Shown here piece by piece: positions 7,016-58,544 of a DNA stretch of 64,000 nt. The stretch covers positions 7,998,001-8,062,000 of the forward strand of contig NC_134426.1 of NCBI RefSeq assembly GCF_030867145.1, written 5' to 3'. The position numbers and the translations under genes are program-made. Positions within the stretch are counted from its first letter, which is position 1. Every line of letters starts with the position of its first letter. This stretch comes from Opisthocomus hoazin. Lineage: Eukaryota > Chordata > Aves > Opisthocomiformes > Opisthocomidae. The notes beneath the pieces were generated by a model. The model saw only the letters and a program-made list of their open reading frames with translations, did not search any database and was not told the DNA's origin.

Positions 7016-7021
7016 ATTAAA

Positions 7022-23942: not shown

Positions 23943-24030
23943 TCATACGCTCAGGGGGAGCATGCCAGGCGCCGAGGATGGTCGAGAGGCTCCCAGTCCG
24001 GGGGGACCTTGATCAAAGCTGTTTACTGCC
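23943..24030 (-). CDS. NDEL1: NDEL1 last coding exon
   Basis: Acceptor ctcctcag/G ends at 24031. The exon completes a codon, reads [14 protein letters not shown] and then [14 protein letters not shown], and stops (TGA 23945-23943). The last 14 residues match the end of NDEL1, the dynein and LIS1 binding coiled-coil protein that acts at centrosomes and in neuronal migration. The gene runs towards MYH10, the conserved convergent order in vertebrates. None of the other NDEL1 exons were found between here and the ERV2 edge at 28404, although they should lie at higher coordinates on the - strand. The gene is therefore probably truncated at ERV2, unless the last intron is very long. Confidence 0.85.
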
Positions 24031-25296
24031 CTGAGGAGCAAGAAGAGACAGGCCGGTAAGTGATGAGCCCCAGGAGACGGCACCGCTCACCCCTCCCGGC
24101 CCCAGCAGCTGGAGAACAGACCCCTCTCCTCCCCTCTCACCTCACCCTGGCTGTACGATGACTGCAAGGCCACTGTGACCACAACAGGGCTCCCATGGCT
24201 GCGCCCACCCACAGCCAGGGACAGGCGCAGGTGGGTGCTCACCCCGCTGCCTGGAGGTGGTGGGTGCTGCCTGATGACCACCCCAGGAGGACAAGCAGCT
24301 CCTGCGCAGACCCCAGGCCCCCACACCGGGCTCTGGGCAGCTGAGGGGCCGGGCACAGCAGCGCTACAGGCTCGCTCCCCACGGCCAGCTCACCTCCCCT
24401 CTTCACGGGTGCTGGTGGGTTGCGAGAGGAGAACATGGGTCTGACAGCTTTTCCATCTCTACTCCATTCTGGCTTTGGCAGATCTTCTGTGATCAGGCTC
24501 AACACAGAGCGTCTGCCCAGGCTCACAATCTGCTGATCATCACCACCACCACAGCCTTGACAACCAGAAGCAATGGCATCCCCATATCAGGACAGCACGT
24601 CCACCCCCACTGTTGTCCCAGAACCAGCACCCTGCCCTCACAGTCGGGTTTGTAATAACAAAGGTGAGGAAGAACTCCCCCAGCCCTGCAAGGTCCCTAC
24701 CTCGACGTCTGCTGGCTCCCAAGTGCTGCCTCTGCAGCCCTTCACCAGCTTCACCCGAACCACCGGCACCCCAGAAGATGCCATTGAGATCCCTCCTGGC
24801 AGAGCTACGTTTGGGAGAGGGGACACCTGAGGAGACAGCCTCTGCTGCCTAGAGCTGCGAGCTGTGGTGAGTAGAAGCAAGAAGGAAGAGAAGCCGAGGG
24901 CTCTCCTGACGAGCTCGAAGCCAAGCCAGGAGCCGGCAGCTCCGGGGTCCCAGGCTGCGCCCACTCCGCGGAGCACATCCCGCTCGCTGCCGTCACTGTC
25001 CACGGGACCGAGATGCCACCAGCCCACGCGCGGTGGCTCACGACTGCATCCCCGGGCAGAGCAGCGCGGTTTCCGCACTCCTGTTCCTGTGCTGCGCACA
25101 TTCACCGGTGACCTTGCAGCTCCTGCGTCAGGGATGAAAAAACCCCGCCAGCAACCCCAGAGGCTGCTGCCGTTGCACTGGGCAGTCACAAGCTCCTTCC
25201 ATGAAGAGCTAAAATCCCGACAGTCGCTAGCAAGAACAGATTCCCATGGTAACGCAGCTCGCTGCTGCGGGGAGTCAGGCTGTTTCCTTTCCCCAT
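24031..25296 (-). other. NDEL1: NDEL1 last intron, proximal part; no feature recognised
   Basis: GC-rich with short open frames on both strands. No known domain and no further NDEL1 exon was recognised. Confidence 0.45.
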
Positions 25297-26470
25297 AGAA
25301 TCCTAGAATGGTGGGGGTTGGAAGGGACCTCTGTGGGTCACCCAGCCCAACCCCCTGCCCAAGCAGGGTCACCCAGAGCAGGCTGCACAGCACCGCGTCC
25401 AGGCGGGGCTGGAATATCTCCAGAGAAGGAGACTCCACAGCCTCCCTGGGCAGCCTGGGCCAGGGCTCCGTCACCCTCAGAGGGAAGAAGTTCTTCCTCG
25501 TGTTCAGCTGGAACTTCCTCAGCTTCAGTTTGTGCCCATTACCCCTTGTCCTGTCGCTGGGCACCACTGAAAAGAGTCTGGCCCCGTCCTCCTGACACCC
25601 ACCCTGCAGATACTTATCAGCATTTCTATGGTCCCCTTTCTGCCTTCTCTTCTCCAGGCTGAACAAGCCCAGCTCCCTCAGCCTTTCCTCGTAGGGGAGA
25701 TGCTCCAGTCCCCTCACCATCCTCGTAGCCCTCCGCTGGACTCTCTCCAGTAGCTCTTCATCTTTCTTGAACTGGGGTGCCCAGAACTGGACACAGTACT
25801 CCAGATGGGGCCTCACCAGGGCAGAGTAGAGGGGAAGGAGAACTTCCCTCGCCCTGCTGCCCACACTCCTCTTGATGCACCCCAGGATCCCATTGGCCTT
25901 CTTGGCAGCCAGGGCACACTGCTGGCTCATGGTCACCCTGTCATCCACCAGAACACCCAGGTCCCTCTCTGCAGAGCTGCTCTCCAGCAGGTCCGCCCCA
26001 GCCTGTACTGGTGCCTGGGGTTGTTCCTCCCCAGGTGCAGGACCCTGCACTTGCCCTTGTTGAACCTCATCAGGTTCCTCTCTGCCCAGCTCTCCAGCCT
26101 GTCCAGGTCACGCTGAATGGCAGCACAGCCTTCCGGTGTGTCTATCACACCTCCCAGGTTGGTGTCATCAGCAAACTTGCTGAGGGTATACTCAGTCTCT
26201 TCATACAGGTCATTGGGCTGAGCCCAGTACTGACCCCTGGGGGACACCACTAGTTACTGGCCTCCAGCTAGACTCAGCACCGCTGATGACAGCCCTCTGA
26301 GCTCTGCCATTCAGCCAGTTCTCAGTCCACCGCACCGAGCACTCCTCCAGTCCACACTTCCTGAGCTTCCCTAGAAGGATGTTATGGGAAACCGTGTCGA
26401 AAGCCTCGCTGTTAAACACCCACACTAGCACAGCCTGGCTCAGAGCAGGGAGAAACCACCTTTCCCACCT
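25297..26470 (-). mobile_element. CR1 LINE, 5' truncated, antisense
   Basis: On the - strand it encodes reverse transcriptase parts ([56 protein letters not shown]) and ends with the CR1 3' end at about 25297 (complement of AGAATCCTAGAATGG). Frames are broken near 26050 and 26210. Confidence 0.93.
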
Positions 26471-26892
26471 CCTCCCCATTGAGCTGGAAACTTCAACTCC
26501 CATTTGAGCATTGCCTTGATACAGGGAGGTGCCTCCCTGACTGCACGCAGTAAAAAGCTGCTGGAAGAAGCTCAGGGGCAGACGTATCTCACTGTCTACA
26601 TTTGGATGACGGGCCATGAAGCCAACCTGATCCCGACACGACTCTGCAAATTAGTTAACAGCTCGGAAGCACCTCTGACAAGTAGGACGGGGGGGGAAAA
26701 CAAAACCAAACAACAACAAAAAAAACCCAACCCAAACTGGATTAAAACGTGGTACTTTGCTCCCTTCTGAAAGGATCAGAGAAAAGTGGCATTCCACTTC
26801 AGCAGCCTGGGTGTGCTCAGGTCTCAGGAGCTGCGTTCAAGCCCAGCTCTACAGCTCTGTCACGTTTCCTGCACTAAACTCCGGGCTGCTCT

Positions 26893-26957
26893 TTCACAGA
26901 ATGGTTTGGGTTGAAAGGGACCTTCAGAGGCCATCTAGCCCAACCCCCTGCAGTAAG
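26893..26957 (-). mobile_element. CR1 3' end, antisense, very short
   Basis: Complement of the CR1 terminus, AGAATGGTTTGGGTTGAAAG and following. It stops where a + strand CR1 fragment begins. Confidence 0.85.
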
Positions 26958-27232
26958 TAGGTGCCCAGCGACAGGACAAGGGGCAACGGGCACAAACTGA
27001 AGCAGAGGAAGCTCCAGCTGAACACAAGGAAGAACTTCTTCACTCTGAGGGTGACGGAGCCCTGGCCCAGGCTGCCCAGGGAGGCTGTGGAGTCTCCTTC
27101 TCTGGAGATATTCCAGACCCGCCTGGATGCGGTGCTGTGCAGCCTGCTCTGGGTGACCCTGCTTGGGCAGGGGGTTGGGCTGGAGACCCACAGAGGTCCC
27201 TTGCAACCCCTACCATTCTGTGATTCTCTGAA
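26958..27232 (+). mobile_element. CR1 3' fragment, sense
   Basis: CR1 3' part from GTGCCCAGCGACAGGACAAG to ATTCTGTGATTCTCTGA. It abuts the preceding antisense CR1 with both 3' ends pointing outwards. Confidence 0.9.
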
Positions 27233-28403
27233 ATTAAAATACATTAAACAGAGGAACTGTGAAAAATAACAAATAAAGTATGCTGGATGACTCCTGGCTA
27301 ACCTCCCAGAGGAGAGCGGGGAAGAGAAGTCCTTGCGCCCGGTCTCCAAGGTCTCCGACAGTGCCGGAAGGAGCACACGCATCGCTCCAGCCTTCAGCCG
27401 CTCTGCCCAGGCCTGACACAGACGCGGGGCTCCTGCACGGAGCTGACGCTGCCCGACAGCCTGGAGACCTGCCCACAGCCATTAATCCCAGCCAGATCAC
27501 TTGCCTGCTGCTTCTGCCTCATTTCGCCATCCCTCAGACCCAACCCACTCTGTGGGGCCCGCGCTGCGCCCTTGCTCTGGGCTTCCTAAGAAACTGGGCT
27601 CAGGGGTGCTTCACAGGGAGCCGAAGCCCCAGTCCCTGCTGGGAACAGCCCCAGCAGTGGTTTCTGATGGATGCTCCTGACTGCCTGCCCCTGCAGTGGC
27701 GTGGACCTTGTGCCCATTTCCAACTGCTCTCTCTGCCCTGTGATTGCTAAAGACAGATTTTTACATATGAATCTTTATTCCAAGCTGTATTTTGTGCTTG
27801 GCACCTTATCTCCAAGACTCTCTCAGCTCTAAGTATCCAACAAAGCCTCAGCAGAAAATTCTCCTGTTGCTGAATAGCCCAGGCTGAGGAGTAAATGGAT
27901 GGGGTCAAAGCATGCTTGGAGACCAGCCCCCCAATAAAACAAGAGGAAAAGGGAGTTTTCAGGCAGGGCAGTGCTTTGAAACACACCCAAGCAGCAGTAA
28001 CAGCACAAGGAGGCAGAGGAACGCCCAGCACGGAGGTGCAAGGAGGAAGATGAGGACAAGGCTGTGGCAGATGAAGCTGGCAGGGACCTGCACCTTTCGA
28101 CAGCACAGGGAACCCTCTGCGCTCCCTCGAGAGGCAGATGAGGGAGACAAGCCAGACCCTTGGATGCTGGAGGGCGTGCCTGCACCGAGCCCCTGTGCCC
28201 AGGATCCCCCCACAGAGCCCGGGACCCCGGGGTCTGCGCAGGCTGCTTCCAGCTGGCACGGCTGTGGCGGGTAGGGACGGTGGCACCAAGCCGGAGCACT
28301 GCTGTCTCGACACGCACGCTGCTGATCACACGGTCCTCCGCCCCTGCTCTGCAACCCTGGCCGGCTCCCAGCACATCTGTGCCTTTGTTGGCTTTCCCAT
28401 CGG
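27233..28403. other. No gene recognised; left flank of ERV2
   Basis: Mixed-composition DNA without recognisable exons on either strand. It ends TTCCCATCGG at the LTR. Confidence 0.5.
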
Positions 28404-28815
28404 TGTTTTGGTTTCGGCTGCCGCCGGCAACAAAAGCGCCACGCGGCCGCCCCTCCCCCCACCGGCGTGCGGAGGAGAATGGAAAGAAAGAGGCAGAAAC
28501 TGGTGGGTCGGGATAAGGGCAGTTTAACAGAACAGCAAACAGAGGGAAAACAGGAACAACAATGATACAAATAAGGAGAAAACACAACAACGAACCGTAC
28601 AACAGCCGCTCTCCCGAAACCGGACCGGCGCTGCGCCCGCCCAAGCCACGAGAGCGTTCCCGCCGCGCCGCCCCCCCCACCGGAACCCAGCGTGACGTCA
28701 CATGGTATGGAATACCGGGCTCCGTTTGGCCAGGTGGGGTCAGCCCCCACCCCCCGGCTGTGCCCCTTCCTGGAGTCCGGTGAAAATTAACCCTGTTCTG
28801 GCCAAACCCAGGACA
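28404..28815 (-). repeat. ERV2 3' LTR
   Basis: 412 bp, TG and CA ends, close to the ERV1 LTRs. TGACGTCA lies at 28693-28700. Confidence 0.94.
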
Positions 28816-29304
28816 TTATCCACCCCTTATTCCATACCATCTACGTCATGCCCAGGTCCCCCATTGTCCAGTTGATCACCACCACTTCTGTCTCCAGATA
28901 TCATTCCCTTAGTCTATGGACCATCACTCTAAAGTGTCCGTTGAGTTCATTTAATCCATGACTTCGGGCTCCATCTGTCATAATGGTCTTCCGTGGCAGG
29001 AGAGGTGATGTGTGGTGGTGGGCGGTCACTTGCTGCATCCGGAGCTCACGGCTGATGTATCTGGTGCGGCCCGTGCCCACAGTCTGCAGGAGATGTTGAT
29101 CTTGATGAGGTTGCTGGATGCCAGTTGTTGAAAACCAGGTCCAGTTCCATCATCGCTGTGCTCTGCTAGGTTTTCATCGAAAAAGTCCATCCTTCTTTAA
29201 TCTGGAGAATTCTTACTATGCTACTACTGGTACAAAATATGACAGTTATAACAGTGATAACAGACAGTGACAGGGCCCACAACAACTAACTTTATACAAT
29301 TTAT
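28816..29304 (-). other. ERV2 3' non-coding region with polypurine tract
   Basis: Same content as 1213-1706 of ERV1: a purine-rich sense end next to the LTR and no env frame. Confidence 0.75.
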
Positions 29305-32300
29305 TTATGGACTATTCTCCCCCAAAATTAAATCCCCATGAGGTACACATCGGACTTCCCCATCCTTCTGCATTACCCACCAGTTACACCCAGGTCGTTG
29401 AGCAAAGGCAATCCCGCGGACGGGCTTGCCTTTGCCCAAGGCAGGACTAACCCAAACTGTCTTCCCTAGCATTTTCCGCATGTGCACTACAGGGACTTTA
29501 TCCCCTTCTACTGGGCGCTGAGGTTTTGACTGGGCAGGACCAGCCCGGTTGGTGGACCCTCTGGTGTTAACCAACCAGGTGGCCTTTGCTAAATGGGTGT
29601 CCCAATTTTTGAAAGTCCCACCCCCCATTGCCCTCAAAGTGGTTTTTAGCAGCCCATTGTAACGTTCGATCTTTCCAGAGGCTGGTGCATGGTAGGGGAT
29701 GTGATACACCCACTCAATACCGTGTTCTTTGGCCCAGGTGTCTATGAGGCTGTTGCGAAAGTGAGTCCCGTTGTCCGACTCGATTCTTTCGGGAGTGCCA
29801 TGTCGCCACAGGACTTGTTTTTCCAGGCCCAGGATGGTATTCCGGGCGGTGGCATGGGGCACAGGGTAGGTTTCCAGCCATCCGGTGGTGGCCTCCAACA
29901 TTGTGAGCACATAGCGCTTGCCTTGGCGGGTTTGTGGCAGTGTGATGTAGTCAATCTGCCAAGCCTCCCCGTATTTATATTTTAGCCATCGTCCTCCATA
30001 CCACTGAGGCTTTACCCGCTTGGCTTGCTTGATTGCAGCGCATGTCTCACATTCATGGATAACCTGTGCAATAGTGTCCATGGTCAAGTCCACCCCTCGG
30101 TCACGAGCCCATCTGTATGTCGCGTCTCTTCCTTGGTGGCCCGTGGTGTCATGGGCCCACCGAGCTATAAGGAGTTCACCCTTATGTTGCCAGTCCAGAT
30201 CCACCTGAGCCACTTCAATCTTAGCAGCCTGATCTACCTGGTGGTTGTTTTGATGTTCTTCAGTGGCCCGACTCTTAGGGACGTGGGCGTCCACGTGACG
30301 GACTTTTACAGCCAACTGCTCCAGACGGGCAGCAATATCTTGCCACAATGGGGCAGCCCAGATAGGTTTGCCTCTGCGCTGCCAGTTGTTCTTCTTCCAT
30401 TGCTGCAGCCACCCCCACAAGGCATTGGCCACCATCCAAGAGTCGGTGTAAAGATAGAGCACTGGCCACTTCTCTCGACTGGCAATGTCTAAAGCCAGCT
30501 GGATGGCTTTCACCTCTGCAAACTGGCTGGACTCACCTTCTCCCTCGGCAGTTTCTGCGACTTGTCGTGTAGGGCTCCATACAGCAGCCTTCCACCTCCG
30601 CTGCTTCCCCACAATGCGACAGGACCCATCCGTGAACAGGGCATACTGTTTCTTATCTTCTGGCAGCTGGTTATACAGTGGGGCCTCTTCAGCACGTGTC
30701 ACCTCCTCCTCTGGCGATGCTCCAAAATCTTTGCCTTCTGGCCAGTCCATGATTACCTCCAGAATTCCTGGGCGACTGGGGTTTCCCATTCGGGCACGCT
30801 GGGTGATCAGATCGACCCACTTACTCCACGTAGCATCGGTGGCATGATGCGTAGAGGGGACCCTCTCTTTGAACATCCAGCCCAGGACCGGCAATCGTGG
30901 TGCTAGGAGGAGCTGTGCTTCAGTGCTGACCACTTCTGAAGCAGCTCGAACGCCTTCATATGCTGCCAGAATGTGTTTTTCAGTGGGAGTATAGCGGGCC
31001 TCGGATCCTTTGTATCCCCGGCTCCAAAACCCCAGGAGTCGACCTCAAGTCTCCCCTGGTGCTTTCTGCCAGAGACTCCAGGTTGGGCCATTTTCCCCGG
31101 CTGCGGTGTAGAGCACGTTTTTAAAATCTTGCCCTGACCGGACTGGACCAAGGGCTACGGCATGAACTATCTCCCGTTTAATCTGTTCAAATGCCTGTCG
31201 TTGCTCAGGGCCCCATTCAAAATCATTCTTCTTCCGGGTCACGTGGTACAGAGGACTCACGATCTGGCTGTAATTTGGGATGTGCATCCTCCAAAAACCC
31301 ACAACACCCAGGAAGGCCTGTGCTTCCTTTTCGCTGGTTGGTGGAGACATAGCTGCTATTTTGTTGATGACATCCATTGGGATTTGACGGCGCCCATCCT
31401 GCCATTTTATTCCCAAAAACTGGATCTCTTGCGCAGGTCCCTTGACTTTACTTCGCTTAATGGCGAAACCGGCTTTCAGAAGGATCTGAACTATTTTCTC
31501 CCCTTTCTCGAAAACCTCCTCCGCTGTGTCGCCCCATATAATGATGTCGTCGATGTACTGCAGATGTTCTGGGGCTTCACCCTTTTCCAGTGCAGTCTGG
31601 ATTAGTCCATGGCAAATGGTGGGACTGTGTTTCCACCCCTGGGGCAGTCGATTCCAGGTGTACTGGATGCCCCTCCAGGTGAAAGCAAACTGTGGCCTGC
31701 ACTCTTCTGCCAAAGGGATGGAGAAGAATGCGTTAGAGATGTCAATTGTAGCATACCACTTGGCTGCCTTTGACTCCAGCTGATATTGAAGTTCTAGCAT
31801 GTCTGGCACGGCAGCACTCAGCGGTGGTGTGACTTCATTCAGCCCACGGTAGTCTATTGTCAGTCTCCACTCTCCAGTAGATTTTCTTACTGGCCATATG
31901 GGACTATTAAAGGGTGAGCGAGTTTTGGTGATCAGTCCTTGACTCTCCAGCTGGCGGATCAGCTGATGAATGGGGAGAAGGGAGTCTCGGTTGGTACGAT
32001 ACTGTCGCCGGTGCACCGTTGTGGTTGCGATGGGTACCTGTTGTTCTTCAACCCTCAGCAACCCCACAACGGAAGGATCCTCCGAGAGACCAGGCAAAAT
32101 GGACAGCTGTTTAATTTCTTCCGTCTCCACAGCAGCTATGCCAAAAGCCCACCGATACCCCTTTGGGTCCTTGAAATAGCCTCTCCTAAGATAGTCTATC
32201 CCAAGGATGCACGGAGCCTCGGGGCCAGTTACAATGGGGTGCTTCTGCCAGTCCTGCCCAGTGAGGCTCACTTCAGCCTCCAGTACACTCAGCTCTTGGG

Positions 32301-32490
32301 ACCCCCCTGTCACTCCCGAAATGCAAATGGACTCTGACCCTTTGAAATCTGATGGCATTAAAGTACACTGTGCACCAGTGTCCACTAGAGCTTTATACTC
32401 TTGTGGATCTGACGTGCCAGGCCACCGAATCCACACCGTCCAATAGACACGGTTGTCCCTTTCCTCCACCTGGCTGGAGGCAGGGCCCCT
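29305..32490 (-). pseudogene. pol: ERV2 pol, one nonsense codon before RNase H
   Basis: Same frame as gag and open from just after the gag UAG. It contains the protease with its active-site VDTGAQ, the RT with YIDD, RNase H, integrase zinc finger, DDE core and C-terminal domain. A CGA codon of ERV1 is TGA here (31047-31045), splitting the frame between RT connection and RNase H. In contrast to ERV1 the protease is intact. The rest is open over about 1060 codons, a sign of recent loss. Confidence 0.93.
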
Positions 32491-34483
32491 CTAATCCTCG
32501 TCAGAGAATTTGCTGCTCACCTGCTGTAAAAAAGACTTGGAGGTCCCCTCCAGAGGATCGGAATCAAGGTCAAACTGTCTACCTGGTCTGGAGAGCTGGC
32601 TTCTGGAAACTGGAGCGGCACTTTTCCTAACAGAATCCCCTTTGGTGATTGTTTTACCTCGCAACTCACGTACTCGGGCCTCTAGACTTGAGGTGGGTTT
32701 TCCATCCCACTTCCTCATGTCCTCTCCGTGGTCACGCAGGTAGAACCACAGGGTGCCCCGGGGTGTATAGCCTCTGTATTCCCTCTCCTGAGCAGAGAAA
32801 CGCCTGCCCCTAACAGCTGAGACACTGGCCCGTACAGGTGGGGAGTAGGACATATTCCTGTCTAGTCGCTTGACCAGTTTCTCCACGGCTGAGACAAGGG
32901 AGGAAGAGAGACTTTCCTCATATTGGCGGAGTCTGACAGCCACCTCGTCTACTGTTGGTGCGTCTTTACCTTTCCAGTTTACAACTGCCAGTGAGTTGGC
33001 ATGCGAGGAGGGTGCACTCCGCACAAACTTCCTCCACATGGATTGTGAGCACTGGAGTTCATCTGGGTCTGTGGGTACCTGCTCATCGTCTGTGTCACAG
33101 TAAACCAGCTCCCGCACAGCTAATTCCCTCAAGTACTGAATACCCCTTTCCATATTGGTCCACTTGCCAGGATAGCATACAAAATCGTCACTGAAGGCGT
33201 ACCTCTCCCTCACGCCTGACAGAAGTCTCCTCCAGAGGCTGAGGATTTGTTCTTTTTTCCCAATGGCCTTGTCAATGCCCCCATCCCTGGCCAGGGATCC
33301 CAGCTGCTTGGCTTCCTTGCCCTCTAATTCCAAGCTGCTGGCCCCGTTATCCCAGCACCGCAGCAGCCAGGTAGCAATGTGCTCACCTGGGTGGCGGCTG
33401 AAATCTTTCCGCATGTCTCGCAGCTCGCCCAGGGACAGGGACCGGGTGATGATCTCTGTCTCTATCTCCCGTGATGACCCTGGCTCATCATCATCCCTCC
33501 CGGAGCGATCTGCTCTCTTTGCATCTTTCTTTAGTTTTACGGGGGCGACTGCTACCTGCACAGGTTGGTCATTGGGCTCAGTCACTGTGCCTGTGGCTGG
33601 AGCTGGGGCTGGAGCAGCTGCTGTGTCCGCTGGGGAAAACCGAGGCAGACCCTGCAGCTGTGGCTGCAGCAGCCGTGGTGCCAGTCGGGGGGGCTGGGAC
33701 TGCCTGCTGGGCTGGAGGGGCTGCAGGGCCGGCTGGGGAGGCAGCGCCAGCTGCAGTGCCTGCTGCTTCGTTTCCCCCCCTTTCCTCCTTAAGGAACTGA
33801 ACAGTGTTGAACAGGGCTCGGTAGGCGTGGGCCAGACCCCAGCACCTTGCGGTGATCTGTGTCTCTCTGAAGTTCCCAGGGTGGCAGCACACTTTTTGCA
33901 GATACTTTACTAGTTTGTCCGGATCCTGTACTTCCTCAGGTGTGAGTTTAAAAAACACCGGAGGTGCCCACTGCCCTAGGTACTTGCCCATGCTGTCCCA
34001 CACACCCAGCCACTCACAGCTATCCGGCCCCAGGGCAGGTCTCTGCAGGATGTTCTTAACGACTTGTTTAACCCTAAACAAAACCCAGAACCCGTTCAGG
34101 AGGCATAACAAAAGGAGAGTGCTGCCCTGAGCCTCCCACGGGTACTCGAAATTCTCAAAAGCAGTTAGGACCAGCCTGAGGAAGAGAGGGGGGGCGAAAG
34201 AGTGGGGGAAGGTATCCCCTTCGGTTTTCCCCACAGACTGGGTTTGATTATTCACAAATTCTAAGACATAGGATCTGAGGTACGGAAATGACCGCAGTGC
34301 CGCATTGAAATACAAGACTAATTTCATGCACAGTGATGTTATCATATCATAAGTCGATATCGTACAGTACAGCAAAATCATCATCTTAATCCTTTTTCCA
34401 GTGATGATGAACAGCATGGCAATGAACACATAGTGCAAGTACGGATTTACATAGCAGAGCCACTTGATCAAAGTCAGAAACAT
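32491..34483 (-). pseudogene. gag: ERV2 gag with hydrophobic N-terminus, one frameshift
   Basis: Starts MFLTLIK at 34483 and runs in one frame through the hydrophobic segment, the matrix-like part and into the Ala/Pro linker. This proves that the hydrophobic start is joined to gag; in ERV1 the join is hidden by a deletion. An extra base in GGGGAAAACC (33636-33640) shifts the frame. The capsid-like and charged C-terminal parts follow to the UAG at 32493-32491. The coil near 32860 is a few codons shorter than in ERV1. No zinc knuckle is seen. Confidence 0.88.
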
Positions 34484-34595
34484 TTTTTTCTTTTTTACCG
34501 GCGACTACTTAACACAGAAAAATGCGTATGACAAAATTTAAGCAAATCCAAGAAAACAGTTTTAACACCCGCTGCTCAGCCCTGCCGTTATCCCT

Positions 34596-34613
34596 GCCCC
34601 ACGTTGGGCGCCA
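34596..34613 (-). other. ERV2 primer binding site for tRNA-Lys(1,2)
   Basis: In sense TGGCGCCCAACGTGGGGC, 6 nt inside the 5' LTR. It is complementary to the 3' end of tRNA-Lys(1,2), the primer also used by Mason-Pfizer monkey virus and foamy viruses. Confidence 0.88.
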
Positions 34614-34619
34614 AATTAA

Positions 34620-35039
34620 TGTTTCGGTTTCGGTTGCCGCTGGCAACAAAAGCGCCACGCGGCCGCCCCTCCCCCCGCCGGCGTGCGAAGGAGAATGAAA
34701 AGAAAGAGGCAGAAACAGGTGGGTCGGGATAAGGGCAGTTTAACAGAACAGCAAACAGAGGGAAAACAGGAACAACAACGATACAAATAAGGAGAAAACA
34801 CAACAACGAACCGTACAACTCAGACAGCCGCTCTCCCGAAAACAGGAAGGGTGCTGCGCCCCCCCAAGCCGCGAGTGCGGTCCCGCCGCACCGCCCCCCC
34901 CCACCGGAACCCAGCGTGACGTCACAGGGTATGGAGTACCGGGCTCTGTTTGGCCAGGTGGGGTCAGCCCCCACCCCCCGGCTGTGCCCCTTCCTGGAGT
35001 CCGGTGAAAATTAACCCTGTTCTGGCCAAACCCAGGACA
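34620..35039 (-). repeat. ERV2 5' LTR, diverged
   Basis: 420 bp with TG and CA ends. It differs from the other three LTRs by many substitutions and small indels (for example an inserted TCAGA near 34820). TGACGTCA at 34917-34924 is kept. Confidence 0.93.
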
Positions 35040-35040
35040 A

Positions 35041-48576: not shown

Positions 48577-48674
48577 GATGAACAGCTCAAAGAGGAGATC
48601 TCCGAGTATCAGAAGAGCGAGAAGCAAGGACTCCTGTTGCCTGCGCCAGCCGAGACCGAAGAAGTCGCAGCGTG
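48577..48674 (+). pseudogene. Coiled-coil exon fragment cut by ERV3
   Basis: Acceptor ttgaag, then an open frame DEQLKEEISEYQKSEKQGLL to PAETEEVAA that runs into the LTR at 48675. The rest of the exon is not on the far side of ERV3. Its style resembles the ANKRD26-like gene just upstream, which already has a stop at 46148, so it may be a second gene copy or a displaced exon. Confidence 0.5.
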
Positions 48675-49050
48675 TGTGGAGTCCTGGCTGGACGAGAGGG
48701 GACACAGTTTGGTGCTGTTGAGCAACCCAGGCTTGGTAATGGAGACAGACCTTGAAAGCAGCGAACACGGAACACTGCTACAGAAGTAGAGTGGCAAACA
48801 CGGAACACTGGAGCAGGTGGACTGCCACGTTGTTGCTTCCTGCCTTATCATCACTTCCGCATCGAGATGCAGCTCTGCACCAATCACAGCGAGTTGTAGC
48901 TATTTTGACTATATATGGTTAAGATAACTAACCAATCAGAGGCTGTAACTGCTTTGCTATATAAACCTTGTTTTGCTGACTAATAAAGGAGAACGACCAT
49001 ACTCACATTGAGATTTCATTGTTACTCCGGGTCCGTCTCCCACTCCAACA
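48675..49050 (+). repeat. ERV3 5' LTR
   Basis: Starts TGTGGAGTCC and ends CTCCAACA. CCAAT box at 48932-48936, TATATAAA at 48958-48965, AATAAA at 48982-48987, a compact promoter and polyadenylation layout. It replaces the second half of a coding exon. Confidence 0.9.
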
Positions 49051-49052
49051 AC

Positions 49053-49071
49053 TGGTAGCAGAGGATGGTTT
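49053..49071 (+). other. ERV3 primer binding site for initiator tRNA-Met
   Basis: TGGTAGCAGAGGATGGTTT starts two bases after the LTR. It is complementary to the 3' end of initiator tRNA-Met including CCA. Confidence 0.85.
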
Positions 49072-49290
49072 AGTTTCCTGCGGCAAAAAATGATTCATCT
49101 TCCTGCAGAATCTCCGAGTCTGAGGTAAGCAGCTAGAGGAGGGGAGTGGGAAAACAACGGCTGGGAGTGGTGCTGCCTGGGTGCAGCGTCGCAGGACAGA
49201 CACGGACGGCCGCCTCCCAGGGAGTAAACGAGCCCCACTGGTGCTGCCTGGCGCAGCTAAAATTGAACGTGGAGGCCGGGGTCGCAAGCA

Positions 49291-49877
49291 TGGAGATAGA
49301 GGCTGCGGCAACGTTGCTCGTCGGTATGCTCTCTAAGAGAGGAATAGACGCAACGGCAAAGCAACTCGTGAAGTTGATTGGGCCGGGGAGGAGATGGGAT
49401 CCACACTGATATAGGAAGAGTCAGCAGTGGTTAAGCTCCTCCAACCCATTCTCTCCGTGAGAGGGTTACAATATGACTCAGCTACCTTGAAGTTTCTGTT
49501 GCTGTTGCACGGAGAAAGGACTTAAGCCGTTACTTCTGCTTTCGCTACATTAACACCCGAGGGAGGGACCTGCTTGGCAACAACTCTGCTGTTTCAGGGT
49601 CCTAGCCTCCCTATGCCACCTGTGAAAGCAGGAGGGGGTCCGAGTCAGCAGCCCGTGGAGGAAGGGAAACCTGCGGTCCAGGAAAAGTAGTACGCGCGGC
49701 GAGACACACTGACACAGGGGTTTCCACCCCCACCACCAGAGTCACCACCACAGCCACCGTACCGCGGAGAGGTATTTGCTGAGGCGCCACCACCCGCAGG
49801 TCGGCCGGGCGCCGCCACTGCCCCTTCCAATCATCCCACATCCCCAAATCGTGTACCGCGGTATCCTCCACTTCCTC

Positions 49878-49880
<3 letters not shown>
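49291..49880 (+). pseudogene. gag: ERV3 gag remnant
   Basis: A matrix-like start MEIEAAATLLVGMLSKRGID is followed by stops, then a Pro-rich stretch with QPPY at about 49735-49860. It ends in a run of 32 As (49881-49912). Confidence 0.6.

Positions 49881-49912
<32 letters not shown>
49881..49912 (+). repeat. A32 homopolymer
   Basis: Thirty-two As inside the gag remnant. Confidence 0.95.
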
Positions 49913-49914
<2 letters not shown>

Positions 49915-50709
49915 GGCCAGAGTCATTCAGAAAAGTCCTTTTGTTACAAATGTACCACCTGAAGAAAGCCGTGAGCAGGGACTGGGTCTGTTTCCCCCCC
50001 CCCGGGCTCGCTGGAGGATGGGATAGTCACCTAGAAAGGAGCGAAAGCTCCATCAAAAAACTTTTACAGTGAAGTTTGAAAGAACAAAGTCTTGCAGTTT
50101 AAAATCCCTGAGAAAATCATTACTTGGAAATCAGTGCATACAGCTTTAAATGCTCTAAAACTTACAGAGACTATCTTAGAAGCAGCTGCTACTCCTCCAC
50201 TGTTATCTCACAAGCAAGGACAGAGTGCAGTCTGTTGAAATTTAACCCTACATACGACGAAATTCCTATCGAACATGAGAAATGCGGGAAGTAAATCTGC
50301 CAGAACCTGACGATCCTTTGAATCCAGAGAAATGGGAAGTGGGGTGTAAAAATCCGGCATCCCAAAAGTGCACGACAGGGTCTCTCGACAGCAATTGGCA
50401 TACCCGACCTGAGATCAAAACGAGGTGAATTCCAACATAAAACTGCACGGTCCCTCAGATGCTGTACAGCCGCCGCGCCAGCAGTCACCGCATCGAACGG
50501 GTCAGCAAACCTTACACCTGGTGGGGCACATGGCTTCCCCCGGGCAACCGGCGGCACAGTTCCCCCCCACCCCTCCCCTTTTTCCCACCCCCCCCTTTCC
50601 CTCAATCCCAGCGCGCCGGCCCATTCCGGCCAGCCCAGAAGCGGCGTGGCAAGAACCATCTTTCTGACATTCAAGGACTTGGTTACAAAAAAATGTATAC
50701 AATTCAATT

Positions 50710-52503
50710 ACTGCAGTAGAATTCCTTGTGAACAAACAGCTGGACTTTATTATCTTTCCAAGGTTCAGATGGTCTATCTAGATTATGTTATTCACTCTGC
50801 TGAAAGGTGAAAATATTGACATTACGACTGAAGAGTTGTCCCCTCTATTTACTTTGTCAAAAAGGACTCAGATTTATTATTTTCCTGAAGATCAATGCCA
50901 AAAGCAAAAACTGTTCTACAAAAGATTTCAGATTGAATTGCAATTGCCTTTACCTTCAGAATTAATGTCGAATTGCCAACAAATTTGTATATCATTTATG
51001 AAGGTTTTGTTTTACAGCCTTACCCTCTTTTCGATCAGTGGTGTGTTAACACGCAGCAGTTGAAGACTCTGGAATGAATCTCTTTGTCTCATACGCCCAT
51101 GAAAACATTGACTTCAAAGGTACACATCATAGTGTCCTTAATAGCACAAGGTTGGAATCACTGTCAGCAAGTTGATATTATTTGCCTGCTGCTGGCTAAA
51201 GATGACTTTGTCGCTTTAAACAGTGAATCCTTATCACTGCAAGCCGCTCTAGCTGATTATTTAAATAACATACGTTATACCCTTCCACAAAATAAGCTGT
51301 TACATTCCCTTTCTCTAATTTCATTGCAGCGAAAAAAACAACGTGTTTCTGTTCCTATTAAAGGAGCACGAATAGTGTTTTGGAAACAAACAAATTCATC
51401 AGATTAACAATCATCTATTTTAGTCATTGAAGGATCCACACAAATTTTTAAGCTATCAGCGGCCTTGCACTTTTTTTCAATTGTTTTCGACTGAACCACT
51501 CAATGTTGTCACAGATTCTGCATGTTGTGAGTATTGTTCAATGCATTGCAGATGAAATTGCTATTGAAATTAGAAAATCGTGTACGTGTATATTTTATAA
51601 TGCATATATAGTTACATACTACTCTACTAAAACCAATAACTGAAGAAAAAGTTGTAGCAGATAAATTGACAATGGCAGCAGTACTGCCACACGGTTTCAA
51701 GCAAGCCCGATTATCTCATGACTTCTTTCATCAAAACGCCTCTTCCTTGCATAAACAATTTGCTTTGCCCCAGGGGCAAGCTACAAAAAATGTTCATGCA
51801 TGCCCTGATTGTCAATGTATTACACCCGTACCATCGTGTGCAGGAGGGAACCCTCGTGGTTTACGAGCTGATGAGTTGTGGCAAAGTGATGTTCCACATA
51901 TATCAACATTTGGTCGACTGCATTGTGTACGTTAGTGTGGATACTTTCTCAGGATTTCTGGTAGCCACGGCACATACGGGAGAAAAGGAACGTTTCACGG
52001 ACAATTTCTGTTTTCCTACAGGACTGGAGTATACAATGTGTTACAGGTATACAACATTCTTCTACTGCACAAGCCATTGTCGAAAGTGTCCACGGGACCC
52101 TCAAAGCTATGCTAAATAAACAAAAAAGGGGGAATCCTATGGGCAGTGTTACCCCACAGGAACAGTTAATGTACTTAATTTTTAAAATCGTTCTGATGAC
52201 CAATTATTTACAACAGCAGCTGACCGTCAATTCGGGATGGTCGCTCCATTTGTGGTTCGACCAAAAGTATGGTATAAAGAATTTGGGGAATCACAATGGA
52301 CAGGTCCTGTAGAACTAATAATGTGGGGAAGAGGGTATGCGTGTGTTCTTCTTTCAACAGGCCCTCGATGGTTACCGGCAAAATATGTGAAGCTATATCA
52401 TGAGCTGAAAGAACGTAACGCAGAATCCGATGCCAGAGGTGACCACGCTCACTCTCAGGGAGCAACCTCTGACGTGGAAGCAGAAGAGACCCACTCTGGA
52501 TGA
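50710..52503 (+). pseudogene. pol: ERV3 pol remnant (RT connection, RNase H, integrase)
   Basis: Pieces in several frames. 50785-50900 resembles the end of RT. 51330-51540 resembles RNase H, with PLNVVTDSA. 51660-51900 carries the integrase zinc finger (HDFFHQNASSLHKQF, then CPDC) and the tryptophan before the catalytic core. 51930-52130 carries VDTFSGFLVATAHTGEK and AIVESVHGTLKAMLNK. 52270-52503 carries the C-terminal domain (GPVELIMWGRGYACV) and a stop. It encoded genome copying and integration but is disrupted many times. Confidence 0.82.
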
Positions 52504-52803
52504 TCCTGTTACACAGGGAACACTGAAAAAATTGCAGCAAATGCAAGTATTCTGATGACTGCAGTGGGTGCACCACCCACACCAATTAATACATTCCTTG
52601 CATATTTGGCAATTATCTCCCACAACAGCTTTTGTATAACGAAGCAATCTTGGAGGACACGGTATACGCAATTTTAGAACTGCATCTGCACAAGAGCAAA
52701 GGTCAACTAGCAGACACCGTGAGGAAAAGTATAAACCTTCACCTGAGGGCTCCTGACAACTGCCTAGAGGTGCCAATATGCATGTACAAAAGACATTAAT
52801 ATT

Positions 52804-52832
52804 AAAAAAAAAAAAAAAAAAGGGGGGGGGGG
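52804..52832 (+). repeat. A18-G11 purine tract
   Basis: Eighteen As followed by eleven Gs between the pol and env remnants. It looks like an expanded polypurine tract. Confidence 0.9.
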
Positions 52833-54269
52833 AGAAATGGAGAATGATACGTACTTTGCAGAAATGTAATGATTATGTATGTTAACATGGCATAAATATC
52901 TAGTAAGAGTGTCTTTTCGGTACACACATTTGAGTAGAACTATTCCCTGTGCGTTCAGTACTGCAGTAAAGAATGCCTGCTTTCTAGAACTCCAACATTA
53001 AGTTTTAGGAAGTTAATTATTTTGCTGCTTTCTAGTAATAGATTTTGGGTACCCAGGTAGGACGCTGCTCTTGAACTTCAATGGTCCGAGGGATTGCAGG
53101 ACCTCCAGCCGGCACCGAGGGATTCTCAGGGAGAACCTCTGATCACTGGACCAAAAAGTTCTGAGCATGAATCATTAATAAGGCAAAGGCATTCTTCCAG
53201 TATTGTTTTTTGTTGCCTATTTGTTAGTCATAGTAAAAGCTTCACAGCATTGAGCTATATCCCTGACGAGAAGGGAAAGTGTCCTTTCTAATCCAAAATT
53301 GAAAAGAGAGTACTCTTCCTGAAACTGAAGCTTGGGAATTTGTCTGGTAAATGTTGAATATTATTGTAAGTCCTGTCTTTGCAATATTTGGATTTATGCT
53401 GAAAACTTGGTGTGCCTGTGTGTGTGTGCGGTCGCGACCATGAACGTGTGATTTTATGTTACCGTGTTTGTATTTCTGTGATCTGATGGATTTATTTGGT
53501 TTCTGTGATCTAAAGGATTTGTCTGGACTAAGTAACTGTTTTGTGTCTTTTGGTTTGGTAAGTTCTGCAGGTATTGACTATTTCTGGTTTTTGACTTTAG
53601 ATTGTTGTATTTGGACTCTGATTTATCAAAACTTCGGAAGCATTTGATGCAGCAGGGAATAGATGTGGTGATGTTTGCAGCTTTATGCTTTTATGTACAT
53701 TAATTTTAGCCTATATAGTTCATGAGTCATAGTTCTAGGTACATTGATCTTAACCTAGGTAATTAATATCGATAGCCAATACTAAATGTTATGGATGTTT
53801 GTATATATGATAAGTATACCTATAACCCAAGTGCAAATTTACTGAGCTCATATTATTGATACACTGCTATTTCGATGCCTGACGTGGTGAGATGCATTCC
53901 CTCCCATTGACAATAATGATATGTTGTGGTCAAGCGGTACTTTAGTCCCACCATCCACACAGGAAGAAAATTGGATACAAGTAAATCCAGCAAGAAAATT
54001 GAATACAAGTAAACCAATCTACACCAATATGCTAGGTAACAGATTTACCATCAGTATGAATCATTCTCAAGTTAATTTAATCTTTCTTTATATCCAGCAG
54101 GTTGTGGTATGCACTTCACATCTCTATGTCTTCAACTAGCATTTGTGTTCTCTTATCTGTTAGTATTGTAGTTTGTGTGGGCCTCTGAAAGAGTGGTAGC
54201 AAGCTGAAGACCAAAATTAATGTCAGTTCTCATCATCATCAACAACCTCATCAACTATACCTGGCTTGC
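52833..54269 (+). other. ERV3 interior without recognisable frame
   Basis: AT-rich; the surface Env subunit would be expected here. Only short frames are seen. Confidence 0.5.
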
Positions 54270-54428
54270 TCAAAAAACAAAAAAGGGGAATTGTGGAGTC
54301 CTGGCTGGACGTGAGGGGACATAGTTTGGTGCTGTTGAGCAACCCAGGCTTGGTAACGGAGACAGACCTTGAAAGTAGCGAACACGGAACACTGCTACAG
54401 AAGTAGAGTGGCGAACACGGAACGCTGG
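54270..54428 (+). repeat. Extra polypurine tract and partial LTR inside ERV3
   Basis: AAAAAAGGGGAAT followed by TGTGGAGTCCTGG and about 135 bp of LTR, ending abruptly at CGCTGGG. It is more similar to the 5' LTR than the outer 3' LTR is. Confidence 0.85.
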
Positions 54429-54868
54429 GCAGAGAAGCAAGCCAGTGTTACCACAAAAGTCTTGCAATCCCTGCTAGAAGATCAGAGTAGTCTACGACAT
54501 GCGGTATTGCAAAATAGAGCCGCAATTGATTTTTTACTGCTGGCCCAGGGACATGATTGTGAGGATTTCGAAAGCATGTGCTGTATGAACTTCTCCGATC
54601 ATAATAAGTCCATCCACAAGCAATTTTAATGGCTTGAACAGCACGCCAATCAAATACAACAAAGCCAGGGATTTTTTGATGGATTTCTCACCTCGCTCTT
54701 TGGTAATCTGCCCGCTTGGCTTAACGGTTTAATTATAGAAATTTTGCGCATATGTATCGTGTTACTTGCTGTTGGAGTTATAATATGTATTTGCTTTAGC
54801 TGTCTTAAAAAGGCTCTCTCCAAGATGACGAAGCAAACCTGGCTTGCTCAAAAACAAGAAGGGGGAAT
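54429..54868 (+). pseudogene. env: ERV3 env transmembrane subunit remnant, alpharetrovirus-like
   Basis: Reads [16 protein letters not shown], then [16 protein letters not shown] and the CEDFESMCC disulfide motif (C, six residues, CC), then a stop. The rest, in pieces, has a membrane anchor rich in Ile, Val and Leu (about 54740-54815) and a Lys-rich cytoplasmic end. The heptad and cysteine motif are those of alpharetrovirus TM proteins, which mediate fusion. There is no surface subunit, and stops prevent function. Confidence 0.85.
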
Positions 54869-55278
54869 TGTGGAGTCCTGGCTGGACGAGAGGGGACATA
54901 GTTTGGTGCGTTGAGCAACCCAGGTTCCGATCCGGAGGTGAGCCTTGGGAGCGACTGACACGGAACCCTGCTGGGAAGGCAGCGCGATGAGCTCGGGACT
55001 CTGGAGCAGGGGGAACGTCACCGTTTCCTGCCACACTATCACTTCCTTCCTGCCACGTTGTTTTTTCCTGCCACAGTACTGTTTTCACTTCGAGATGCAG
55101 CTCCGCACCGATCACAACGAGTTGCAGTAGTTTTGCCTATATATGGGTTGGGGGTTTAACCATTCAGATGCTGTAATAGTTTTGCTTTATAAACCTTGTT
55201 TTGCTGACTAATAAAGCTGTACGATCATACTCATATTGGGGTCACATCGTTACAACGGATCCGTAACCCACGCCTACA
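54869..55278 (+). repeat. ERV3 3' LTR, other subtype
   Basis: Preceded by a polypurine tract AGAAGGGGGAAT. Starts TGTGGAGTCC, ends CGCCTACA, TATA box TTTATAAA at 55186-55193, AATAAA at 55210-55215. The U3 differs strongly from the 5' LTR after the first 55 bp or so. Confidence 0.88.
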
Positions 55279-55982
55279 TGTACTTCTCTGTTTCCCTATA
55301 TCTTTTTGATGTGTTTATTCCAAATCCCTTCTAGGTCATCTAATCTGCATTTTCAGTGGCCCCTGCTCAGGGCTGGCTTTAACTGAAAGTGAGTAAACTG
55401 AACTGAAAGGCACCTCAGCTGGGCATTTAAACAGACCCTACACGAGACGATGGCTCTCCGGAGGAGTTGTTGTTCTTGGTGGAGGCTTCACTCTTGAACC
55501 AAGTTGTATGAAAAATCTGAATGTGGCTACATCAATGGCAAGCGAAATGGAAATGATCTCAAAAGAGAAGGACTGTACAGGTAGCCCAGGAAAGTAAAGG
55601 CTGAAAGGGCACATAGGCTGTCTGCAAAGAGGTGTCATTTCTGGCTTTGGCACTGATTACATAAAAGTGTTTGGAAAAGATACATTGGCCATCTGCTGTC
55701 TTGTGCCTCTTCAGGGGCTCCAGCTGACCCACTGCTTGGTGTCATTCCTCATCAATACTGCTCAAGGGCTGATCCTTTATTCTTTGTGAGGAGAAACCAA
55801 GTACAGATTATGTTTGCTTTCAGAAATGTGTTTTATATGACATGCAAGGGTCTTCCCAGCCACGTGTTCAGGAGTGTCATGCCCAAGCACCAGGACCACC
55901 TGAATCAGTGCGAAGGCATTTTGAGGGAAGCAGGAGGGGGCTGTGGGGAGGGGTGCTCAGCCGCTGGAGACATCCCTGTCCC

Positions 55983-56034
55983 AGAGGGGAGAGGAGGGGG
56001 AGGGGAGGGGAGGAGAGGGGAGGGGAGGCGAGGG
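55983..56034 (+). repeat. GGGGA-rich purine tract
   Basis: About 50 bp of G and A with repeated GAGGGG, able in principle to form a quadruplex or triplex. Confidence 0.85.
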
Positions 56035-58363
56035 ACCTTTTCAACAGTGGGTATCAGCCCCAGGCTGCATCCTGAGACACGCAGTCCTGTTGCCTGTGTG
56101 AGGACACAAGTGACGGCCGGCAGGATAAGAGGCTGGATGCTCTCGGGGCGGCTGCTGGGGCCAGACTGGTGATTTCCCACTGGGGCTGGGGCCTGGTTTT
56201 GCCCAAAATTTAGGTTACTGCCAGGAAGTGAGGCACGTGAACCAAGGCAGAACCCCGTGCTGCCGCCCAGACCCTTCCCCTCTGACACACTCAGACATCA
56301 GCCCCCCATGCCAGGGGTGCTACCCCATAGCAGCAAGCGGCAGGTCTGGTGGAGAGGAACCTTCTCCGTCTCCTGCCAAAGTTGTCCTCATCTTCTTGTT
56401 CCAGCTCCCCAGTGACACAGGCTGTTGCCTGCAGTCCGAGACAGGCAGCTCCCCCCATGCTAAGCCGCAAGGCCTCCATCCTGCTGACAAGTCTCTTTGC
56501 AAACCACAGGGTTCATTGCAAACAAAAACCACCGTGGAAAAAAAAAGCCCCCCAAAAGACCAAACCACCAAGTAACAGAGAACACGTATCTTGTGGCTCT
56601 GGGTTGGCCACATCCCCTGCTTGCTGGCTGTGAAGTTAGCTCAGCCTTTGGCCCAGATGATCACCCCGCAGAATGAGTAAGTCCAAGTGAGTGCCTCGGT
56701 GAGATGACCGATGGGCAGTTTAGCGACTGCACAAGGGTGGCTGATGCTCAGATGCGAGGGGCGGCACGCAGCAGCTGCTGCATTAGTGTGCATTTCACAC
56801 AGCCCTGCAGAGAGCCAGCTGGTGCAACCCCCGCTGCTTCTCCACCTGGCTCCCTTCCACGTTAATGCGGCCGGGAGGTGCCTTGCAGTGAGAAACGGGC
56901 TGTACGGTCACCAGTGGCCAGGGAAACCGGCCAGGACCCAGCCCTTTGAGACATCCCTGCGGTGGGGAGGTCCACCCTTCCCCAGCACTTACCTCCTGCT
57001 GCTGGGACGGGGGCTTCACAAGAGTTTGGTGGGGGAAGGAAGGACCTTCTGAGATGATGTGAGAGCTGGCACAGGCTGGGGATCACCCTCTGGAGAGCCA
57101 TGGGCAGAATGGGGATGTGTCCAGAGCACCCGGTGGGCACTTGGCATTGCATTCCCACCTCTGCTCTCCTCTGGCCTCCAGGACAGCTGTAAGAAGTCCT
57201 CAAGCCTCTCCCAAGGTTTTCAGCAGTGGGAAATAGCTGAGCTGTTGATTCCTCACGGCCCTTTTCATCCTCTAGGTAGGTGCACAGTTTGGGACACGGC
57301 TGGGGCCCCACCAGCTACCCCTCCATGGGAGCAGGGAGCACCCCATGCCACCCACCAGACAGAGGAGAGGAAGCAGTGCTGGCAGCAGCATGTCTCCTTG
57401 GCCCAGCAGGTGGGCAGAGGGGACATCCTGGAGGCAGAGGGAAGGAAGGCACTTATTCCAGCTCCGGGGGAAAGAGCATCTGAAAGAGCATCCTCAAAAC
57501 GCTCAACAATGTTTTGCCTTAAAACAATGGCTTATAAAAAAAAAAAGCCAGCCATCACTCTCCCATGGCCAGGAGCTGACGTTCTGGGACCATGAGCATT
57601 CCCAGTCTTTGCAATCCTCTTCTCATGCATGATCCCACAAGTAGCTCTGGAGCCATCTCTCCCCGGACAAGTCCCAACTCGGAGGCTGTTACAGCAGCGA
57701 TTCGATACGGAGGTATCCTGATGGCCTTTGCTGAAGACAGCCCACTCATGGAGCAGCACGGTCCCATGGATCTCCTGGTGGCCCTCCCCACTGGAGACCT
57801 CTCCTCTCACGCCCATCTGGACACGGTCAGTCACTCGGTCCCAGTGCGTCCCTCCGGATCGGCATGGCCAGCGCAGGACAGCTCTGCCGGCTTCCTGGTA
57901 ATTGCAGGCACGCTCTGCCCAGCAGCCCGGGAACATCGTCAGCCCGAGGGGTGATTAGCGATGATTCAGGGGATTTCACCACAGCTGTGGAGGGAGACTG
58001 GCCAGTTTCTGCGGGCAGACGCAGCCTGGCCCACGCTTACTGAAACACCAGTTTTCCCACCCAAGATGACTTCACCACCCAGTGCCCTAAAACTGTCTCG
58101 TCTGCCTCTCGGAGCCATGGTCGCTTCCAGCTTTGTCCCAGGCCAGCGAAGGAGGAGAAACCCCCTCGGTGCCACAGCCAGTCCGCCACCTCCGTCAGGT
58201 CCCGCTGGCAGGGCTGGTGCCAGCACTGAACCTGCCTTGGGTTTTCCCTCTGGTTTCACTGCGCCTTGAACACGTGGCAGCGTTTGAACTGCAAACAACC
58301 GGTTTGAATTGGAGTGATATTTTATTATTCATCCAATACGTTAGGAAGCGTGAGAACAAAGTG

Positions 58364-58369
58364 CTTTAT
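58364..58369 (-). terminator. CKB: CKB polyadenylation signal candidate
   Basis: On the - strand AATAAA overlaps the ancestral stop codon region (TAG AAA TAA AGC). If used, the 3'UTR would be extremely short; a further downstream signal is possible. Confidence 0.4.
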
Positions 58370-58371
58370 TT

Positions 58372-58544
58372 CTAAGCTGGTATGATGTCATCAATGGACT
58401 GGCCTTTTTCAAGGCGTTTCTCCATTTCGATGAGCAGCTTCACACCATCCACCACCATCTGCAGCAGCTCCACCTCAGAGAAGCCAAGGCGATCAGCATT
58501 GGAGACATCAAACACTCCTCCGACAGCAGCTGTGTCCACACCAC
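58372..58544 (-). CDS. CKB: CKB last exon with premature stop
   Basis: Acceptor ctccag, reads [20 protein letters not shown] to [10 protein letters not shown] and stops at TAG (58374-58372). The next codons are AAA TAA, the expected Lys and normal stop. Confidence 0.95.

What the first reader, a model, noticed from the sequence alone, without database searches (positions are those of the whole stretch)
23943..58544. Unrelated gene blocks are joined at proviruses
MYH10-NDEL1 is one conserved block. CKB belongs to another chromosome in birds as far as I know, and the ANKRD26-like gene to neither. The joins coincide with ERV2 and ERV3, the two proviruses without target duplications, while ERV1 inside a block has them. 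This is the pattern expected from ERV-mediated ectopic recombination building a mosaic chromosome, such as a W chromosome or a songbird germline-restricted chromosome.
Basis: inference. Interest (0 to 1): 0.85.

Follow-up and report, generated by a model that had tools for sequence, protein, structure and literature searches.

The report
Retrovirus-joined gene mosaic in the hoatzin
Three pieces of DNA that belong to different hoatzin chromosomes are stitched together at two old retrovirus insertions, and the same patchwork is found on a second chromosome, so it looks like a scrambled duplicated segment of ordinary chromosomes and not a sex chromosome or a germline-only chromosome.

Summary
The window is hoatzin contig C13:7998001-8062000. 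ERV1 has a GGAGA target duplication; ERV2 and ERV3 have none. Contig C19 carries both joins, so misassembly is unlikely. Pre-insertion sites are visible: 106 ERV2-free copies of the MYH10-side site, 6 of 8 CCDC30 copies with the exon uninterrupted, and 4 of 4 CKB copies outside the window-C19 pair without ERV3's right LTR. C15 shares ERV2's left LTR at the same base but has another right flank: the flank-swap signature of ectopic recombination between proviruses. ERV3 is a composite of two proviruses, and its join is older and messier. W and GRC fail: the two strongest CHD1-like hits, taken as CHD1Z/W, are on C40 and C41, and hoatzin is not a songbird. The MYH10-side repeat is amplified (370 candidate places for one probe; one site on at least 16 contigs; recurrent 57-66 kb spacing). 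The window's MYH10 is a pseudogene.

The parts
730..798 (+). MYH10 tail exon, first part, interrupted by ERV1
   Evidence: exon uninterrupted in C19 and C26
799..7434 (-). ERV1, provirus in a MYH10 exon, LTRs 4 subs/414, target duplication GGAGA
   Evidence: absent in C19 and C26
7435..18221 (+). rest of the MYH10 tail copy, a pseudogene: donor GT to AT after 12785, one extra base at the start of the last exon (18073)
   Evidence: intact state in C26
23946..24029 (-). NDEL1 last exon; no other NDEL1 exon matched in the window
24030..28403 (.). left flank of ERV2, part of the high-copy MYH10-NDEL1 repeat
   Evidence: 27240-28403: 114 candidate places, 40 scored; 106 empty sites
28404..35039 (-). 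ERV2, chimeric provirus at the first join; LTRs 20 subs/412; no target duplication
35040..37133 (+). CCDC30 late exons (35040-35215, 36960-37133), the first one cut by ERV2
37310..37315 (.). deletion junction: about 9 kb with CCDC30 3' exons missing relative to C13:9817483-9826546
   Evidence: shared by C19
37541..41966 (+). ANKRD26-like (CCDC144C) gene copy
44780..48674 (+). CCDC30 early exons (44780, 45860, 48571), the last one cut by ERV3
48675..54432 (+). ERV3 left part: provirus A in a CCDC30 exon, its 3' LTR cut after about 140 bp
54433..55278 (+). ERV3 right part: envelope fragment (weak Pfam matches) and 3' LTR of a different provirus B
55280..64000 (-). CKB block with 3' flank; six CKB exons open, stop two codons early

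Best explanation
The window is a composite duplicon on an autosome-like contig of the hoatzin. A broken MYH10-NDEL1 segment had been amplified to many copies on several contigs (shown). In one copy a provirus sat at the site now 28403 (shown by empty sites elsewhere). Homologous but non-allelic exchange with a related provirus inside a CCDC30 exon produced ERV2 and joined the MYH10-NDEL1 unit to the CCDC30/ANKRD26-like block (inferred from swapped flanks and mismatched LTRs). The CCDC30 block had already been joined to the 3' flank of CKB at provirus A. In the window-C19 lineage provirus B landed in the CKB flank, and a deletion fused A to B, giving ERV3 (A and B shown; order of events inferred). 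The product then spread: C19 holds a near-complete copy. ERV1 inserted last, seen in the window copy and not in C19. No function of the mosaic is needed; CKB may still be expressible, this MYH10 copy is dead.
For: Both joins on C19, colinear with the window. Site at 28403 without ERV2 in 106 places, reversed control 0, and in 6 of 7 copies read. The seventh, C15, has the left LTR at the same base (99%) but a CR1 behind its right LTR. Left LTRs of window, C19 and C15 group; right LTRs of window and C19 group apart from C15. LTR divergence is 20/412 in window and in C19, high for an insertion younger than the 98%-identical empty copies (P=0.0004 on that assumption). The CCDC30-side 1 kb of ERV2 differs 6.9% from ERV1, the rest 2.4%, boundary chosen after seeing the profile. 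CCDC30 exon uninterrupted in 6 of the 8 copies cut out, of 11 found. ERV3's 5' LTR matches an internal LTR stub 114/118 but not the 3' LTR beyond 57 bases; CKB site without that LTR in C7, C13b and two C10 copies. ERV1 absent in C19 and C26, GGAGA single.
Against: No intact parent provirus with matching target duplication at the MYH10-side site was found (0 places); the search for the CCDC30-side parent did not complete. In C13b the CCDC30-CKB join has about 1.2 kb between a provirus A truncated elsewhere and the native CKB flank, so that join is not simple LTR-LTR exchange. The CKB tree puts C19 with C13b and C10 rather than with the window (UFBoot 81), and a 5-kb piece at 58301 is kept in C7 and C19 but missing in window and C13b: copies have exchanged since. 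The private changes of ERV2's two LTRs, 6 against 14, do not differ significantly (p=0.12). Coding constraint could explain part of the ERV1-ERV2 profile.
Confidence: 0.8

Rival explanations
1. A W chromosome (ERV refugium) that collected autosomal blocks.
For: 31% of the window is ERV, as on avian W chromosomes and unlike autosomes with 6-12% TEs (PMC8310711, section read); decayed gene copies.
Against: The two strongest CHD1-like hits, the expected Z/W pair, are on C40 and C41. The composite is on C13 and C19, relatives on C10 and C15, and no listed copy or 121 (capped lists except 72) is on C40 or C41.
Confidence: 0.04
2. A germline-restricted chromosome.
For: The zebra finch GRC holds paralogues of genes from many chromosomes (PMC6884545, abstract start seen).
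Against: The species is hoatzin: exact contig lengths C15 and C16 and a clade with support 99; hoatzin is not a passerine.
Confidence: 0.01
3. Assembly misjoins inside repeated proviruses.
For: Proviruses are classical misassembly points (recalled); ERV2 is internally mosaic.
Against: The same two joins on C19 with about 1-1.4% divergence in the host blocks; no N in the window.
Confidence: 0.06
4. The blocks were joined by ordinary segmental duplication (end joining, template switching) and proviruses came later. This figure is for the ERV3 join and overlaps with the best explanation, which already allows it there.
For: The 37310/37315 deletion lies away from any provirus; in C13b no LTR was matched at the CCDC30-CKB break; provirus B is younger than that join.
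Against: At ERV2 both flanks have empty sites elsewhere and the break lies exactly at the LTR edges on both sides.
Confidence: 0.3

Closest known systems
Interchromosomal segmental duplication mosaics (pericentromeric/subtelomeric duplicons of primates; recalled)
   Same: Blocks from several chromosomes, high identity, several copies, partial genes; the primate ANKRD26/CCDC144/POTE relatives are also duplicon genes (recalled).
   Different: A bird; one site of the unit occurs 106 times with recurrent spacings near 60 kb, and one join sits on an apparent LTR-LTR exchange.
Avian W chromosome ERV refugium (PMC8310711)
   Same: ERV-dense, decayed genes.
   Different: The window contig carries neither of the paired CHD1-like hits.
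Z-to-W DNA transpositions in songbirds (PMC7692361, abstract and passages)
   Same: DNA-based transfer of gene blocks; here too introns are kept.
   Different: Source and target here are autosome-like contigs; that paper's main text has 0 occurrences of breakpoint, LTR and endogenous retrovirus.
CR1-linked rearrangement speculation in parrots (PMC8854603, passages)
   Same: Ectopic recombination between repeats proposed in birds.
   Different: Here the repeats are proviruses and the flank swap is read from copies.

Membership tests
Product of ectopic recombination between proviruses (ERV2) | No matching target duplication | tested here: met
   ATCGG/ACTGT
Product of ectopic recombination between proviruses (ERV2) | Each flank occurs elsewhere with its own native continuation | tested here: met
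   left: 106 empty sites; right: 6 of 8 copies
Product of ectopic recombination between proviruses (ERV2) | The two LTRs have different histories | tested here: met
   LTR tree and 20/412 in two copies; private changes alone, 6 against 14, are not significant (p=0.12)
Product of ectopic recombination between proviruses (ERV2) | Parent proviruses with their own target duplications still present | tested here: inconclusive
   MYH10-side parent: 0 places; CCDC30-side search unanswered; parents may have been lost
Simple provirus insertion (ERV1) | Target duplication and empty site | tested here: met
Avian W chromosome | Carries the W copy of a conserved Z/W gene | tested here: not met
   CHD1-like hits on C40, C41, C10 and C20; none of the 4 on C13
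Avian W chromosome | Female-specific depth | not testable with these tools
   no reads
Songbird GRC | Species is a songbird | tested here: not met
   hoatzin
Interchromosomal segmental duplication | Same multi-block segment at 90% identity or more on more than one chromosome | tested here: met
   C13 and C19; parts on C10, C13b, C15
Tandem macrosatellite | Head-to-tail units of constant length | tested here: inconclusive
   Same-strand spacings of 57-66 kb, 12 of 21 spacings under 150 kb in capped lists; no unit was read end to end

The most novel reading that the evidence does not exclude
The hoatzin carries an autosomal exchange network: a dead MYH10-NDEL1 unit of about 60-65 kb repeated in megabase-long arrays near one end of many chromosome-scale contigs, in which proviruses act as the homology that lets arrays trade flanks and capture genes such as CKB and CCDC30, much as human acrocentric short arms exchange duplicons (recalled). 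The hoatzin's known chromosome fusions and fissions (PMC7259548, passages) could be linked to it.
Probability: 0.4. Interest if true: 0.8.

Novelty: new variant of a known kind. Interest (0 to 1): 0.62.

Why it matters
Bird genomes are described as having a low rate of gene movement (PMC7599627, passage). Here one can read, base by base, the empty sites, the provirus and the swapped flanks of an exchange between chromosomes, and it sits in a gene-derived repeat amplified across many contigs. It makes the question whether proviruses drive chromosome exchange in birds testable from one assembly, and it warns that MYH10, CCDC30, ANKRD26-like and CKB copies can mislead gene counts and read mapping in hoatzin.

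Tried and rejected
W chromosome: favoured for a while because of the ERV load, rejected. GRC: rejected by species. The view that the ANKRD26-like gene is an independent block: rejected. Misassembly: made unlikely by C19. The test of private changes in ERV2's LTRs was not significant (6 against 14, p=0.12). The protein search with the MYH10 tail listed 68 proteins, none named as a bird's, and gave nothing on chromosome location. Pfam on ORFs at 23.5-28.8, 55.6-57.6 and 61.3-61.9 kb and on one CR1 frame: 0 families in 10 of 10. The first 300 bases of C13, C15 and C19 hold no TTAGGG or CCCTAA, and what was looked at of C10 reads N, so subtelomeric against pericentromeric is undecided. The third hoatzin contig length (33265756) has no exact partner; C10 has 33261987. 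Copy counts may be inflated by alternative haplotypes: C54 repeats part of the spacing series of C13:0.6-1.7 Mb (my arithmetic). A paper search for segmental duplications, avian genome, ERVs and subtelomeres listed one paper, not read. Rows dropped: matches under 150 bases or 85% and short CR1 matches were not printed; matches under 300 bases or 93% were left out.

Full report
What is in the window. Self-comparison finds two proviruses of one family, ERV1 (799-7434) and ERV2 (28404-35039), 96.2% alike, and a third of another family, ERV3 (48675-55278). ERV1 and ERV2 carry reverse transcriptase, RNase H and integrase domains on the minus strand; in ERV2 these lie in separate open frames, so its pol frame is broken by stops. 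ERV3 is degenerate, with an integrase zinc-binding match and weak envelope matches below the cut-off. Together the proviruses are 31% of the window.

Host genes. The CKB part (316 aa) matches chicken CKB best, with five differences, and its stop comes two codons early. The middle block is CCDC30 (DUF4686, E 3e-18) and an ANKRD26-like gene (CCDC144C, E 2e-24). The CCDC30 pieces are two partial copies: late exons left of the ANKRD26-like gene and early exons right of it. Hoatzin protein P0047 (LOC142363353) has the same order, ANKRD26-like exons followed by CCDC30 early exons.

Species and place. Nine residues in a 115-residue CCDC30 piece are shared by the window and two hoatzin copies and by at most two of the other rows; 26 of 51 rows were ungapped and used, 51 of 120 covered both exons. 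In a tree of 42 distinct rows plus the window, window and hoatzin form a clade with support 99. The window's genome G000 has contigs of 26829410 and 22219440 bases, the lengths of hoatzin contigs; a third hoatzin length, 33265756, has no exact partner (C10 has 33261987). The window is C13:7998001-8062000, on a contig of 29.8 Mb.

Where the blocks belong. The MYH10 copy on C26 (10.9 Mb) was read at three places: the exon without ERV1, the donor as GT and the last exon in frame; the window copy has AT at that donor and one extra base. I take C26 as the native gene. The window copy is 596/656 identical to the human tail as typed, read through the lesions. CKB on C7 (75.9 Mb) continues on both sides without the mosaic; I take it as native. 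CCDC30 copies form a cluster on C16; that this is the native locus is inference. The chicken chromosomes of these genes (18 and 5) are recalled, not tested.

The joins are real. C19:492805-555387 is colinear with the window across both joins and both proviruses, in pieces of 94-99.5% identity, with an extra 0.6 kb inside ERV3 and an extra 4.7 kb at 58301; it lacks ERV1. Substitution divergence window-C19 is 0.95% (147/15475) in the MYH10 block, 1.12% (27/2420) beside NDEL1, 1.37% (159/11577) in CCDC30 and 1.41% (123/8707) by CKB; window-C7 is 2.34% (203/8686) and window-C16 2.78% (58/2090). The pseudogene lesions are already in C19; the donor change is also in C20, C23 and C25 but not in C26 or C13:5.446 Mb.

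ERV2. In 6 of 7 other copies read, the left flank runs on past position 28403 without a provirus; the joined empty site occurs 106 times with up to 2 mismatches, 0 for the reversed control. C15 has the same left LTR at the same base, but behind its right LTR lies a CR1. On the other side the CCDC30 exon is uninterrupted in 6 of the 8 copies cut out, of 11 found. The LTR tree groups the three left LTRs (4 to 7 substitutions per 412) and separates the right LTRs of window and C19 from that of C15. The two LTRs differ by 20 of 412 in both window and C19, more than expected for an insertion younger than the 98%-identical empty copies (P=0.0004 on that assumption). The CCDC30-side kilobase is more diverged from ERV1 than the rest (72/1036 against 137/5600, boundary chosen after seeing the profile). 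I read this as exchange between two proviruses at different places, seen with two different partners. Missing: an intact parent (0 places).

ERV3. Its 5' LTR matches an internal LTR stub at 54292 (114/118) but diverges from the terminal 3' LTR after the first 57 bases. Provirus A sits in the CCDC30 exon with the same left flank in two C13 units, and a C10 copy matches the window unbroken across that edge. The CKB-side site has no LTR in C7, C13b and two C10 copies. C13b joins CCDC30 to CKB without provirus B: a truncated A, about 1.2 kb of which 190 bp match another part of the CKB region, then native CKB flank.

Results against a simple tree. CKB sequences group C19 with C13b and C10 (UFBoot 81) while CCDC30 sequences set window and C19 apart from the other six copies (100); the 5-kb piece at 58301 is missing from window and C13b but present in C7 and C19. 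Copies have exchanged sequence more than once.

Amplification. The MYH10 intron probe has 370 candidate places, 40 scored, on 11 contigs; the ERV2-left probe 114, 40 scored, on 7. CCDC30 gave 11 places over most of its probe (76 candidates, 40 scored) and CKB 6 of 6. The 100 listed of 106 empty sites fall on 16 contigs; on C10, C13, C15 and C19 all 58 lie within the first 9.2 Mb of contigs 18.6-33.3 Mb long (contig lengths). Same-strand spacings cluster at 57-66 kb (12 of 21 under 150 kb). ERV2 is thus the edge between a high-copy and a low-copy block. Alternative haplotypes may inflate the counts.

Chromosome type. The family search for the CHD1-like C-terminal domain gives two nearly equal hits on C41 and C40 (63.2 and 62.8 bits), one on C10 and one on C20. 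I read C40/C41 as the sex chromosomes because birds carry CHD1 on Z and W, and C10's hit as CHD2 (recalled); C13 has none. No sex-specific reads were available. Hoatzin is Opisthocomiformes; GRCs are described from songbirds (search listing).

Literature seen. PMC8310711: abstract, section 5 and passages. PMC7692361: outline with abstract and passages. PMC7599627, PMC7259548, PMC7349364, PMC10886771 and PMC8854603: passages. PMC6884545 and PMC9974502: listing only. The hoatzin searches listed no paper on such duplications by title, but none of them paired hoatzin with segmental duplication as terms.

Noticed in passing
43082-43382: Tandem array of a 39-bp unit, 7.8 copies, in the GC-rich stretch between the ANKRD26-like gene and the CCDC30 early exons; the unit resembles the promoter motif ACTACAACTCCCAGCATGC (recalled).
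   Followed up: no
36336-36413: An ANKRD26-like exon in inverted orientation inside a CCDC30 intron; 29 of the 40 scored places match only this part at 78-84%, and three on C13 lie 25.6 kb from MYH10 hits (my arithmetic).
   Followed up: partly
58301: A piece of about 5 kb present in C7 and C19 is missing at the same base in the window and C13b.
   Followed up: partly
G000:C54 and C13:0.6-1.7 Mb: Part of the series of spacings between empty sites is the same on both contigs: a megabase duplication or an alternative haplotype.
   Followed up: no
C13:9792157-9854791: A second C13 locus with two ANKRD26-like/CCDC30 units, provirus A in both, and CKB behind the second.
   Followed up: yes
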